The position numbers and the translations under genes are program-made. A DNA stretch of 64,000 nt, from the NCBI RefSeq assembly GCF_000298175.1, contig NZ_BAGZ01000022.1, positions 1-64,000 of the forward strand. The letters are read 5' to 3'. The DNA is from Austwickia chelonae NBRC 105200. GTDB lineage: Bacteria; Actinomycetota; Actinomycetes; Actinomycetales; Dermatophilaceae. This document shows, piece by piece, positions 60,112 through 64,000 of the stretch (its first letter is position 1; the number at the start of each line of letters is the position of its first letter). Below the pieces are notes generated by a model, which was given only the letters and a program-made list of their open reading frames with translations, was not told the origin of the DNA and did not search any database.

Positions 60112-61319
60112 GGGTTCTGGGGGTGATGTCCGGTACGTCCTTGGATGCGATTGATCTGGCGTTGGCGCAGATTTCGGCGGTGGATCTGCCGGTTTCGGGG
60201 CGGGGTGAGTCGGGGTACGAGGTGCATCTGCTTCCGGTGGCGGATGAGGAGGTGCCGTGGCCGGCTGGGGTGCGGGCGGAGTTGGTCGCGGCGAGTACGG
60301 GTCGGGTGGTTGCGGGTCCGGATCGGTGGTGTCTGTGGCATGCGCAGGTCGGTCGGATCGTGGGGGAGGCGTGTGCGCAGGCCATCGCCAGGTGGGGGCC
60401 GGTGGATCTGATTGTCTGTCATGGGCAGACGTTGGCTCATGTCGTGGTGGACGGTCGGGTGTCGGGCAGTCTTCAGGTGGGTTCTCCGGCGCATGTGTAT
60501 GCGGCTACGGGTGTTCCGGTGGTCAGTGATCTGCGGAGTGCGGATGTCGCTGCGGGCGGGCAGGGGGCGCCGTTGGCGAGCATGTTCGACGCGTTGTGGT
60601 TGGGGGATCGGCCGTCGGCGGCGGTCAATCTGGGGGGTATCGCGAATGTGACCTTGATCGATGCGGCGGGTGCGGTGGTGACGGGGGATACCGGTCCGGC
60701 GAATTGTCTGTTGGACAGTGCTGCTGCGGAGCTGGGCGAGTCCTGTGACCGGGAGGGGAGGTGGGCGGCGGCTGGGGTGGTCGACCGGGTTGCTCTGGGT
60801 CGTTTGTTGGCCGATCCGTATTACGCCCGGCCTTTTCCGAAGAGCACTGGGCGGGATCATTTCCACTGTCGTTATGTCCGTGACTTGTTGGGTGGGCAGG
60901 TTCTGTCGGGGCCGGATCTGTTCGCCACGCTCACGGAGTTGTCGGCGCGTACGGTGGCGGATGCGTTGGGTTCGGTCGATCGGGTCGTGGTGTCCGGTGG
61001 GGGTGCGGCGAATCCCACGTTGATGCGCCGGCTGCGGGAGTTAGCTGGGGCGCCGGTGACGACCAGTGATGCGCTCGGTGTGCCGTCGTCGGCGAAGGAG
61101 GCTCTGTTGATGGCGTTGTTGGGTTGGTTGTCGGTTCATGGCGTGCCTGGTGTGGCGGTGGGGCCGGGGGGTCCGGTGACTGGTGCGTGTCGTCCTGCGG
61201 TGCTGGGTTCGTCGACTCCGCCGTGTCGGATGGATCTTCCGGGGCGGTGGGCTGGTCGGCGGCCTCGACGGTTGGTCGTCGGTGTGCGTGGTGGTCGATC
61301 TGGTGGGGGGCAGCGGTGA
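60108..61319 (+). CDS. anmK: Anhydro-N-acetylmuramic acid kinase
   Basis: This 403-residue kinase opens and phosphorylates 1,6-anhydroMurNAc to MurNAc-6-phosphate. RVLGVMSGTSLDAIDLA is the AnmK opening, followed by ICHGQT-like IVCHGQTLAH, AVNLGGIANVT, TGDTGPANCLLD and VVSGGGAANPTLM. The GTG at 60108 overlaps the nagZ stop. A Gly/Arg-rich tail of about 30 residues follows the core and overlaps the murQ start. Confidence 0.95.
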   Translation: MRVLGVMSGTSLDAIDLALAQISAVDLPVSGRGESGYEVHLLPVADEEVPWPAGVRAELVAASTGRVVAGPDRWCLWHAQVGRIVGEACAQAIARWGPVDLIVCHGQTLAHVVVDGRVSGSLQVGSPAHVYAATGVPVVSDLRSADVAAGGQGAPLASMFDALWLGDRPSAAVNLGGIANVTLIDAAGAVVTGDTGPANCLLDSAAAELGESCDREGRWAAAGVVDRVALGRLLADPYYARPFPKSTGRDHFHCRYVRDLLGGQVLSGPDLFATLTELSARTVADALGSVDRVVVSGGGAANPTLMRRLRELAGAPVTTSDALGVPSSAKEALLMALLGWLSVHGVPGVAVGPGGPVTGACRPAVLGSSTPPCRMDLPGRWAGRRPRRLVVGVRGGRSGGGQR

Positions 61320-62278
61320 CGGGTGGTGGTCGGCCTGATCTGGGGTGGCGTACCGAGGGGCGGCATCCTGCGGCTCGGATGCTCGACGCCGGTGACACGG
61401 CTGAGGTGGTGGCGGCGGTGTTTGCTGCCGACCGGCAGGTCTTCGACGCGGTGCAGGCGGTGTCTGCGCAGGTGGTGGCGGCGGCGGAGTTGATGGTCGG
61501 GACGGTTTTCGCGGGGGGTGTCGTCCATTACGTGGGTGCGGGGACGTCGGGGCGGATGGGGGTGTTGGATGCGGTGGAGTTGTGGCCGACGTACCGGGTG
61601 GGTCCGGAGTCGGTGCGGGCTCATCTGGCCGGGGGTTTGTCGGCGATGACTTGTGCGGTGGAGGGCGCGGAGGATGATGAGGCGGCGGGGGCGGCGGTGG
61701 TCGGGGGGTGTGGTCCGGGTGATTTGGTGGTGGGGATCGCGGCGAGTGGGCGGACGCCGTTCGTGCGGGGTGCTCTGGTGGCGGCGCGGGGGCGCGGGTT
61801 GGTGACGGTGTTGATCGCGGCGGTTCCGGATGCGGCGTTGGCGGGGCTGGTGGATGTGGCGATCTTGCCGGATACGGGCCCGGAGGTTGTGACGGGTTCG
61901 ACGCGGTTGAAGGCGGCGACGGCGCAGAAGTTGGTGTTGAACGCCTTGTCGACGGCGACGATGGTCCGGTTGGGGAAGACGTATGAGGGTTTGATGATCG
62001 ATCTGGTGCCGACGAATGCGAAGTTGCGGGCGAGGTCGGTGCGGATGTTGGTGCAGGGCAGTGGCCGTTCGGAGCCGGAGTGTGCGCGGGCGTTGGCGGC
62101 GGCGCGGGGGCAGGTGCGTCCGGCGTTGGTGGCGTTGGCGGCGGGTCTGTCGCCGGAGGAGGCTGGTTCGGCGGGGGTGGCTGCTGCGGTGGCGGCGTGT
62201 CCGCCGGATCCGGGGCGGGTGGGTGATCCGTCGGGGGTGCGGGCGGCGGTGGCTCGGGTGCTTGCGGGGCGTTCCTGA
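61316..62278 (+). CDS. murQ: N-acetylmuramic acid 6-phosphate etherase
   Basis: This 320-residue SIS-fold enzyme removes lactate from MurNAc-6-phosphate to give GlcNAc-6-phosphate. It shows HPAARMLDAGD near the start, VGAGTSGRMGVLDAVELWPTY, VEGAEDDEAAG, GIAASGRTPFV and TGSTRLKAATAQKLVLNALST. The GTG at 61316 overlaps the anmK stop. It closes a six-gene transport and recycling operon. Confidence 0.96.
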   Translation: MTGGGRPDLGWRTEGRHPAARMLDAGDTAEVVAAVFAADRQVFDAVQAVSAQVVAAAELMVGTVFAGGVVHYVGAGTSGRMGVLDAVELWPTYRVGPESVRAHLAGGLSAMTCAVEGAEDDEAAGAAVVGGCGPGDLVVGIAASGRTPFVRGALVAARGRGLVTVLIAAVPDAALAGLVDVAILPDTGPEVVTGSTRLKAATAQKLVLNALSTATMVRLGKTYEGLMIDLVPTNAKLRARSVRMLVQGSGRSEPECARALAAARGQVRPALVALAAGLSPEEAGSAGVAAAVAACPPDPGRVGDPSGVRAAVARVLAGRS

Positions 62279-62312
62279 ACGGCGGGGTTTTGTTCTTCGG
62301 CCTTCGAGGTTT

Positions 62313-62337
62313 TGGCGTTCATTGCCGGGCTGGCGGG
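62313..62337 (+). repeat. 25-bp direct repeat, left copy
   Basis: This sequence, beginning TGGCGTTCATTGCCGGGC, is repeated exactly at 63453-63477. It lies 34 bp after murQ and marks the left edge of an AT-rich segment. Confidence 0.92.
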
Positions 62338-62507
62338 ATTGGTTCGCTGATCAGCAAGGTGAGGAGATAATCTCCTCTTGAAGAGTGCTTTTGCATAGCA
62401 ATATTTGTTGGCCAGATATCGGGGGGCATGTTCTCCTTCCCGATAATGAGGATTGCAGCCGTTTCCGACGTGCGCGATGGCCTTGTGGAAGAAAGTTGGC
62501 GAGCCGC

Positions 62508-63452
62508 ATGCCTCAAGATAGAGTTTTTGTAAAATATTATATTAGTGCAGATAGAAAGACATGGCGGTGGTGGTGTGAGGTGGCGCAGCTGTCCGCTTTT
62601 GCTGGAGGAAATCTCCTCTTCGCTGGGGCGATCGGCTTTGTAATTTTGTCCGAGCGGACTCTGTTGTATATCCCCTTATTTTCTATGTTCTTCTCCGGGG
62701 GGCTCTTGCTCGCCATGTTCTTGGTGTATGACCTTTTCGGAGTATCTCCAGAATGTTATATTTCTATTTATCGAGGGCGAAAAGTTGTCGTCATGTCGGC
62801 GTTCCCTAGGCTGTGCCTGATACCGGCTCAGCTGACCGTTCACTCATTGGCCGCACTCATGCTTACCGTTAGTCTTGACAAAAATGATGGACATTTAATT
62901 TACGATGGTTTTTTCTGGATCATGGTTTTTCCTTTTCTGCTCATGTCCTTGGCGACAATTTCTGGGGCTTGGATGGGTTGGCCCAGGGTGATATTGCGTT
63001 CGGATGCAGTTATCATTCACTGGAAATTCTCGGAGACCGTCATTCCCTGGGAGAAGGTTGTGAGAGACGATCTTGGAGGCCGCGATTTTAGAATCAAAGT
63101 CGCGGCGCGAGTGAGGGCTGAAAGGAGATTTCGCATCCTCTTTGGGCTGAATATTCCTACGCCCCTCATTCAAGTTCCGTATTCAATCGATCTTGTTTGC
63201 CTTTATGAGGGCAAATATTTGTACAATCAATGGGAGTACGCCTCGCGTGTCGTTGATTTTTATTTAGCGAATGCGGAGGCGCGGGAGCGGCTGGGAACTC
63301 GGGAGTCTCTGCGGGAGATCAGGGATGAAGAGCTGAGAACCAGGCCTTATCTTGTTTTGCCTGATATGGATGAGAGGGTTAACTGCCCGGAGGGCTGTCA
63401 ATGTTGTCCACTATCGCTTGAGTGGGATAATCGAAGCTCTGCAAGTTTGTGA
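62508..63452 (+). CDS. Membrane protein of unknown function, AT-rich
   Basis: This 314-residue protein has four hydrophobic segments (around FAGAIGFVIL, LFSMFFSGGLLLAMFLVYDLFG, LIPAQLTVHSLAALMLTV and FFWIMVFPFLLMSLATI). A soluble C-terminal half opens with VILRSDAVIIHWKFSETVIPWEKV, like a bacterial PH-type domain. It ends with a small Cys cluster (CPEGCQCC). Composition and codon use (ATA, TTT, AAA) differ strongly from the neighbours, and its stop codon abuts the right 25-bp repeat. I infer recent insertion. No partner gene is present in the insert. Confidence 0.72.
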   Translation: MPQDRVFVKYYISADRKTWRWWCEVAQLSAFAGGNLLFAGAIGFVILSERTLLYIPLFSMFFSGGLLLAMFLVYDLFGVSPECYISIYRGRKVVVMSAFPRLCLIPAQLTVHSLAALMLTVSLDKNDGHLIYDGFFWIMVFPFLLMSLATISGAWMGWPRVILRSDAVIIHWKFSETVIPWEKVVRDDLGGRDFRIKVAARVRAERRFRILFGLNIPTPLIQVPYSIDLVCLYEGKYLYNQWEYASRVVDFYLANAEARERLGTRESLREIRDEELRTRPYLVLPDMDERVNCPEGCQCCPLSLEWDNRSSASL

Positions 63453-63477
63453 TGGCGTTCATTGCCGGGCTGGCGGG
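63453..63477 (+). repeat. 25-bp direct repeat, right copy
   Basis: This is an exact copy of 62313-62337, starting at the base after the stop of the AT-rich gene and ending 12 bp before the stop of the macrodomain gene. Confidence 0.92.
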
Positions 63478-63489
63478 GCCTGGCCGTGC

Positions 63490-64000
63490 TCAGCGGTGAT
63501 CGAGCAGCTCGACGAAGATTCGGTGGGCTTCAACGCTGAACAGGACGAAGCGGATCAGGTCGAGACGTCCGTCGGCGGCCGCAGGATGCGCGCCTGCCGT
63601 GGCGACGGCGATCCGGGCGACCTCGGCCATGTCCCAGCCGTAGATGCCGGCGCTGATCGCTGGGAAAGCGACAGTGCGTGCTCCGACGCTGACGGCGACG
63701 TCGAGACTATTGCGGAAAGCCGCAGCAAGCAGCTCCGGATCGTCCTGCCCGGCATGTCGATTAGGGCCGACCGTATGGATCACCCATGCGGCGGGCAGCC
63801 GTCCGGCAGTAGTGGCGACAGCCTGACCGACCGGCAGCCCCCGGGGCAGGTCGCCGGACCGTAGTTCTCTACAAGCGTTGAGGAGCTCGACGCCAGCGGC
63901 GCGGTGGATGGCGCCGTCGACGCCGCCGCCGCCCATCAGGGAGGAATTGGCGGCGTTCACGATCGCGTCGACCTGTTCGGTGGTGATGTCGCCGTGGACG
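63490..64000 (-). CDS. Macrodomain protein (O-acetyl-ADP-ribose deacetylase type), 5' end outside window
   Basis: The gene runs off the right end; the last bases read [20 protein letters not shown], so only the start is missing. The ADP-ribose-binding and catalytic loop [30 protein letters not shown] and the second loop [14 protein letters not shown] are intact and match the MacroD/YmdB group. It removes ADP-ribose or hydrolyses O-acetyl-ADP-ribose. Composition is normal for the genome, unlike the insert beside it. Confidence 0.92.

What the first reader, a model, noticed from the sequence alone, without database searches (positions are those of the whole stretch)
62313..63477. AT-rich one-gene insert bounded by a perfect 25-bp direct repeat
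The repeat copies at 62313 and 63453 enclose about 1.1 kb with clearly foreign composition and a single membrane protein with a PH-like domain. The right repeat starts immediately after the gene's stop codon. This looks like a cassette inserted between murQ and the macrodomain gene, though no integrase is present. It could be a defence or immunity cassette moved by an enzyme acting in trans.
Basis: partly seen in the sequence, partly recalled or inferred. Interest (0 to 1): 0.68.

Follow-up and report, generated by a model that had tools for sequence, protein, structure and literature searches.

The report
Orphan immunity-like gene between deletion scars
The AT-rich gene is not a newly inserted cassette but the remnant of a larger secreted-effector gene cluster that a related species still has, and the protein it still encodes probably protects against that effector.

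Summary
The 25-bp perfect repeat (62313-62337, 63453-63477) and the AT-rich membrane-protein gene (62508-63452) are real. The insertion reading is not. In sister species G001 the murQ-macrodomain interval (about 7.3 kb) holds a type VII (ESX)-like module: SAV_915 gene, 110-aa WXG-like gene, 401-aa effector-like gene with a glycine-zipper end, the ortholog (71% identity), a 274-aa paralog, then oppositely oriented ABC and lactococcin-972-like genes. In the window the left repeat spans a deletion joint: murQ flank, 28 bp from inside the WXG-like gene, then the effector's last 13 codons and stop, out of frame. The right repeat is the same 25-mer joined to the macrodomain flank at GGCGGG. So the locus is a deletion relic, at least on its left side. 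The kept gene has dN/dS 0.25 against its ortholog. Polytopic membrane proteins lie directly downstream of related effectors in 20 of 28 loci, against 1 of 28 murQ control loci. Most likely role: orphan immunity to a membrane-active effector, like TsaI or ExiCD; inferred, not shown. How the second repeat copy arose (template switching, or tandem duplication plus deletion) is open.

The parts
61316..62278 (+). murQ (SIS-domain etherase), left neighbour
   Evidence: 90% aa identity to G001 murQ; SIS-type Pfam hits
62301..62328 (+). fragment from the inside of the 110-aa WXG-like gene
   Evidence: 23 of 28 bases match G001 in that register; best of 200 shuffles 20
62313..62337 (+). left copy of the 25-bp repeat, spanning the WXG-like/effector deletion joint
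62329..62370 (+). last 13 codons and stop of the effector gene (remnant); the WXG-like piece enters it in another frame
   Evidence: alignment with G001 begins at 62329, register switch at about 62329; reading by eye
62477..62521 (+). short upstream reading frame of 14 codons overlapping the gene start, present also in G001
   Evidence: significance untested
62508..63452 (+). kept fourth gene of the module: 314-aa polytopic membrane protein with PH-like region, putative immunity protein
   Evidence: 71% identity to the G001 323-aa protein; dN/dS 0.245; link to the fourth-gene family
63433..63452 (+). 20 bp of unknown origin that encode the last residues and stop of the gene
   Evidence: homology to G001 ends at 63432; no match in the G001 interval better than shuffles
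63453..63477 (+). right copy of the 25-bp repeat, joined to the macrodomain flank at GGCGGG
   Evidence: alignment with the G001 macrodomain flank starts at 63472, 117 of 129 bases
63490..64000 (-). macrodomain gene, right neighbour (runs past the window edge)
   Evidence: Pfam Macro, E 1.4e-39

Best explanation
The locus is the relic of an ESX/type VII-like effector module that stood between murQ and the macrodomain gene. Shown by comparison: the SAV_915 gene, nearly all of the WXG-like gene and all but the last 13 codons of the effector gene are missing from the window and present at that place in G001; the leftovers are fused out of frame at short shared words; the fourth gene is intact. 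Inferred: the effector disturbs target membranes through its glycine-zipper end, and the kept polytopic PH-like protein sits in the membrane and blocks it, so the window species no longer makes this effector but stays immune to kin that do. The 25-bp repeat is a by-product: the left copy spans the WXG-like/effector joint, the right copy is a second copy of the same stretch joined to the macrodomain flank, arisen by a template switch during the last rearrangement or as the rest of a tandemly duplicated module.
For: Synteny with G001. Three successive registers across the left repeat: murQ flank to about 62300, WXG-like gene 62301-62328 (23 of 28, shuffles at most 20), effector end from 62329. 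Shared word GGCGGG at both joints. SAV_915 domain over cut-off in 3 of 3 module proteins tested, one each from G001, G024 and G116. Polytopic membrane ORF directly downstream of the effector in 20 of 28 loci and upstream only in 3, against 1 of 28 downstream of murQ. Profile-profile link of the window family to 21 such proteins, 94.9%, E 4.7e-8 over 106 columns. Constraint: dN/dS 0.245. The window genome has an EccC over the curated cut-off but no homolog of the 110-aa or SAV_915 protein. Glycine-zipper pattern at 7 overlapping positions, residues 316 to 343 on, in the G001 effector. Known parallels: ExiCD (passages of PMC12744356) and TsaI (passages of PMC7456083).
Against: No toxicity or protection has been tested. 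The window protein itself scores only E 0.02 against the profile of 21 fourth genes, level with the best shuffle (0.027), and the 323-aa ortholog is not among the rows printed. The WXG and glycine-zipper Pfam/NCBIfam hits of the G001 proteins are all below their curated cut-offs, and the fold search with the effector model found nothing at E <= 0.001. 5 of 28 effector loci have no such neighbour by the rule used, and several loci come from the same genus. In PMC10434224 the six-pass protein next to telE did not protect. dN/dS is pairwise and may reflect the time before the effector was lost. The right side is not polarised and 20 bp there are unexplained.
Confidence: 0.65

Rival explanations
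1. The fourth gene is not an immunity protein but a membrane partner used in making or exporting the effector, and in the window it is a leftover on its way to decay.
For: Function is inferred from position only. In PMC10434224 (passages) the six-pass protein next to telE did not protect. The module also has a SAV_915 protein of unknown role.
Against: The gene is intact while its partners are gone, with dN/dS 0.245. Two diverged paralogs (34% identity) stand side by side in G001, as immunity genes often do. 71% aa identity against 90-92% for the neighbours fits a fast-evolving partner.
Confidence: 0.25
2. One reading: a one-gene cassette inserted between two 25-bp repeats, moved by an enzyme acting in trans.
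For: Perfect repeat, AT-rich content, single gene.
Against: Ortholog at the same site in G001 within a larger module; left repeat composed of fragments of two module genes; no other site of the repeat in the genome; no tblastn match to the protein among plasmid or phage records.
Confidence: 0.03
3. On the right side the window state is the older one: the paralog, ABC and lactococcin-like genes were gained in G001, and only the left part (SAV_915, WXG-like, effector) was deleted in the window lineage. This is compatible with the main explanation and changes only the history of the right joint.
For: The window genome's best relative of the G001 677-aa protein is only 33% identical and lies on another contig. 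No remnant of the right-hand genes was recognised; the 20 bp at 63433-63452 match no better than shuffles. G002 and G003 have murQ in other surroundings and cannot polarise.
Against: The right 25-mer carries WXG-like-gene sequence, so a rearrangement happened at the right joint too.
Confidence: 0.3

Closest known systems
ExiCD, immunity to the T7SSb glycine-zipper toxin EsxX of Staphylococcus aureus (PMC12744356, passages read)
   Same: Two polytopic membrane proteins encoded with a T7SS effector that has a C-terminal glycine zipper; ExiCD also occur in strains without the toxin. G001 likewise has two polytopic paralogs, and the window has one without the effector.
   Different: No sequence relation found (no Pfam family over cut-off for the window protein). 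Here the partner has a PH-like region, the neighbours are SAV_915 and WXG-like genes, and the host is outside the Firmicutes. Protection untested.
TspA/TsaI of Staphylococcus aureus (PMC7456083, passages read)
   Same: Membrane-embedded immunity protein encoded next to a T7SS membrane-depolarizing toxin
   Different: TsaI is a DUF443 protein with five predicted TM segments in an array of ten genes; the window protein gives no DUF443 hit
TelE/TipE of Streptococcus gallolyticus (PMC10434224, passages read)
   Same: Effector with C-terminal glycine zipper; immunity encoded downstream
   Different: TipE is soluble; the adjacent six-pass protein did not protect
esaG and tipC orphan immunity arrays (PMC9484751, passages read)
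   Same: Immunity genes kept without the toxin; gain and loss by recombination
   Different: There long homologous gene copies recombine; here the joints lie at words of 6 to 9 bp and the effector gene itself is deleted
WXG-type polymorphic toxins of Actinobacteria predicted by comparative genomics (PMC3482391, passages read)
   Same: WXG leader, variable C-terminus, immunity gene nearby
   Different: The passages I saw list enzymatic toxins and soluble immunity families; I saw no PH-like membrane family there, having read only the 12 passages returned

Membership tests
Orphan T7SS immunity gene | Homolog lies next to a T7SS effector gene in relatives | tested here: met
   G001 ortholog directly follows the 401-aa effector-like gene; related effectors have a polytopic neighbour downstream in 20 of 28 loci
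Orphan T7SS immunity gene | Cognate effector absent from the genome that keeps the gene | tested here: met
   110-aa protein: no match in the window genome. Effector: no match at 1e-8, only an N-terminal relative on contig C29 (25% identity; E 1e-13 with the profile)
Orphan T7SS immunity gene | Protein neutralises the effector | not testable with these tools
   needs co-expression
Orphan T7SS immunity gene | Neighbouring effector is a type VII substrate (WXG or LXG leader) | tested here: inconclusive
   WXG100-type hits below cut-off; helical N-terminus in the model but no fold match at E <= 0.001
DUF443 (TsaI) or DUF5079/DUF5080 family | Pfam match | tested here: not met
   only bPH_8 at E 0.33 for the window protein
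Bacterial PH domain (bPH) protein | Pfam bPH match over cut-off | tested here: inconclusive
   window protein not over cut-off; one of four related proteins is (bPH_6); profile-profile link
Inserted mobile cassette | Repeats are target-site or attachment-site copies; relatives show an empty site | tested here: not met
   left copy is made of module gene fragments; G001 holds the fuller module at the site; repeat only here
Known anti-phage defence gene | Match to a PADLOC profile | tested here: not met
   0 families at E 0.1 for the four proteins scanned

The most novel reading that the evidence does not exclude
The kept gene represents a new class of polytopic, PH-domain immunity proteins for ESX-exported glycine-zipper effectors, encoded in a SAV_915 / WXG-like / effector / PH-protein module that recurs across the order. 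The locus catches a species that gave up the effector but kept immunity, with microhomology scars that now leave the immunity gene itself between direct repeats and so open to excision.
Probability: 0.4. Interest if true: 0.58.

Novelty: new variant of a known kind. Interest (0 to 1): 0.38.

Why it matters
WXG-type polymorphic toxins of Actinobacteria have been predicted by comparative genomics (PMC3482391, passages), but the experimental toxin-immunity work whose passages I read is on Firmicutes. A recurring module with a polytopic PH-like partner, and two sister species with and without the effector, offer a simple test of whether ESX systems in this order carry toxin-immunity pairs. The case also shows that a perfect direct repeat around one AT-rich gene can be a deletion scar and not a cassette boundary.

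Tried and rejected
Mobile cassette: rejected by synteny with G001 and by the make-up of the left repeat. Common intergenic motif: rejected. Known defence gene: no PADLOC hit. Phage or plasmid origin: no tblastn match to the window protein in either collection, no PHROG hit for it; the G001 effector has weak PHROG hits to tail proteins, best 4.8e-4 to an unknown family, not pursued. Structure of the 314-aa protein: poor model (mean pLDDT 49), not used for a fold search. Structure of the effector: only the N-terminal part is confident and the fold search gave nothing at E <= 0.001. Solved-structure search with the family profile: one hit, E 0.04, unrelated in name. Naming the organism: the first genome-contig scan found no relative, the second returned 80 murQ loci, best 62% identity, from other genera. 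Promoter and terminator scan: 2 and 4 sites against 1.1 and 2.4 in shuffles, not informative.

Rows dropped before counts. One search scanned 31 loci: 30 plus G001. One search left out G001 and two repeats (L050 is the same place as L062; L084 is another piece of the L081 effector), leaving 28. The five without a neighbour are L055, L064, L066, L078 (the window's own genome) and L080. Of these, L064, L066 and L080 hold an ORF that matches the fourth-gene profile but overlaps the effector ORF too far for the rule; for L080 that is trivial, because the same gene, seen as L085's upstream neighbour, was in the profile. L085 counts as upstream only for that reason and is not independent. L067 and L068, and L071 to L073, come from the same genus each. 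In the murQ control (28 loci, L009-L036, which include weak murQ-like rows) the reference ORF is the one with the largest overlap and may in some loci be an antisense frame. Of 27 candidate fourth genes, 21 went into the profile, chosen by eye after removing repeats and unlikely frames.

Full report
Observation. The two 25-mers are exact, 1140 bp apart, not expected by chance, and found only here in the 3.54-Mb genome. In 186 family genomes the only other matches at up to 3 mismatches are two single hits in two other genera. The gene between them has 48% GC; its start shared with the sister species is ATG 62508, giving 314 aa with four hydrophobic segments. The right repeat begins directly after its stop.

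Relatives. Of the four genomes held for the genus, three, the window's own included, carry the gene family; the same three of 186 in the family. In G001, whose murQ is 90% identical, the ortholog (71% identity) stands in the same murQ-macrodomain interval. That interval is about 7.3 kb there, against 1.2 kb in the window, and holds a SAV_915-domain gene (over cut-off), a 110-aa WXG-like gene, a 401-aa gene with WXG-like N-terminus and glycine-zipper C-terminus (weak hits below cut-off; zipper pattern), the ortholog, a 274-aa paralog, and on the other strand an ABC ATPase, a 677-aa protein beside it and a Lactococcin_972 gene. In the 11- and 12-kb stretches around murQ of G002 and G003 no protein matched the macrodomain or module proteins, so they cannot polarise the change. 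G002's homolog lies 256 bases from a contig end; I saw no effector tail there, reading one frame by eye.

Left repeat. Sliding comparison shows three registers in a row: murQ flank to about 62300, inside of the 110-aa gene at 62301-62328 (23 of 28; best of 200 shuffles 20), effector end from 62329, with its last 13 codons and a stop kept. The WXG-like piece enters the effector piece in another frame. At the joint the two G001 genes share GCxGGCGGG. The 25-mer spans the joint. Non-coding fragments of two genes show loss in the window lineage on the left side.

Right repeat. The match to G001 ends at 63432; 20 bp of unknown origin follow, then the 25-mer, whose GGCGGG is shared with the macrodomain flank that aligns from 63472 on (117 of 129). 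Since both copies are identical and end at the same word, the right copy is either a short templated insertion copied from the left joint or the rest of a tandemly duplicated module. Two neighbouring effector matches about 1.5 kb apart in G323 show that tandem modules exist. The data do not decide. Whether the right-hand genes were lost here or gained in G001 is open; the window genome has only a 33% relative of the 677-aa protein, on another contig.

The gene family. A profile of the effector found 18 of 396 genomes of the order, 24 places, the window's own genome among them through an N-terminal relative on contig C29; the G001 protein alone found 7 of 186 family genomes, G001 included, at 1e-8. 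In 28 loci outside G001 a same-strand ORF of at least 130 aa with at least three hydrophobic segments lies directly downstream in 20 and upstream only in 3; downstream of 28 murQ loci the same rule gives 1 (caveats in Tried and rejected). Three of the neighbours (L065, L069, L075) end in a motif resembling the window protein's RLGTRESLREIRDE (by eye). A profile of 21 of them matches the G002 homolog at 9.9e-10 and the G001 paralog at 6.7e-7, but the window protein only at 0.02 (best shuffle 0.027), and the 323-aa ortholog is not among the printed rows. Profile against profile the link is 94.9%, E 4.7e-8 over 106 columns; with only four neighbours it was 71.8%, E 3.5e-5. One of four neighbours scanned is a bPH_6 protein.

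Function. The window genome has an EccC over the curated cut-off, as do three of the four genus genomes, and keeps another EspC-like/WXG-like pair on C29. It lacks homologs of the 110-aa and SAV_915 proteins. The gene has dN/dS 0.245 against G001 (murQ 0.187, macrodomain 0.142) and dS 0.78 against about 0.3, so it is constrained over the pair's history and diverges faster than, or before, its neighbours. Passages of PMC12744356 describe two polytopic proteins that protect against a T7SS glycine-zipper toxin, also in strains without it; PMC7456083 describes TsaI; PMC9484751 describes orphan immunity genes and their recombination. PMC10434224 is a warning: there the adjacent six-pass protein did not protect. 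I take orphan immunity as most likely, not as shown.

Print. SAV_915 appears in one paper of the library, on a paulomycin cluster, seen in the listing only (the 15 listed had no occurrence). Searches joining type VII secretion with orphan immunity, bacterial PH domain, glycine zipper, or Streptomyces effectors, and one on orphan immunity with direct repeats, listed no paper whose title or abstract start describes such a module. The lists were capped and the library is incomplete.

Verdict.

Noticed in passing
L037:7151-10175 (own contig C12:67151-70175, just outside the window): Staphylopine-like metallophore genes: staphylopine dehydrogenase (E 4.1e-181) beside a nicotianamine-synthase-like and a diaminopimelate-epimerase-like gene.
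   Followed up: partly
L078:1124-2571 (own contig C29, about 477 kb): A second EspC-like / WXG-like gene pair is kept in the window's genome, without a polytopic membrane neighbour by the rule.
   Followed up: partly
window 62477-62521: Short reading frame of 14 codons that overlaps the start of the kept gene; a similar one stands at the same place in G001. Could couple translation.
   Followed up: no
L039:7450-7713 (G002): Upstream of the G002 homolog two similar stretches lie in tandem about 120 bp apart at the contig end, seen by eye.
   Followed up: no
L080 and L085 (G323): Two effector matches about 1.5 kb apart, apparently tandem modules, a possible source of repeats like the one here.
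   Followed up: no
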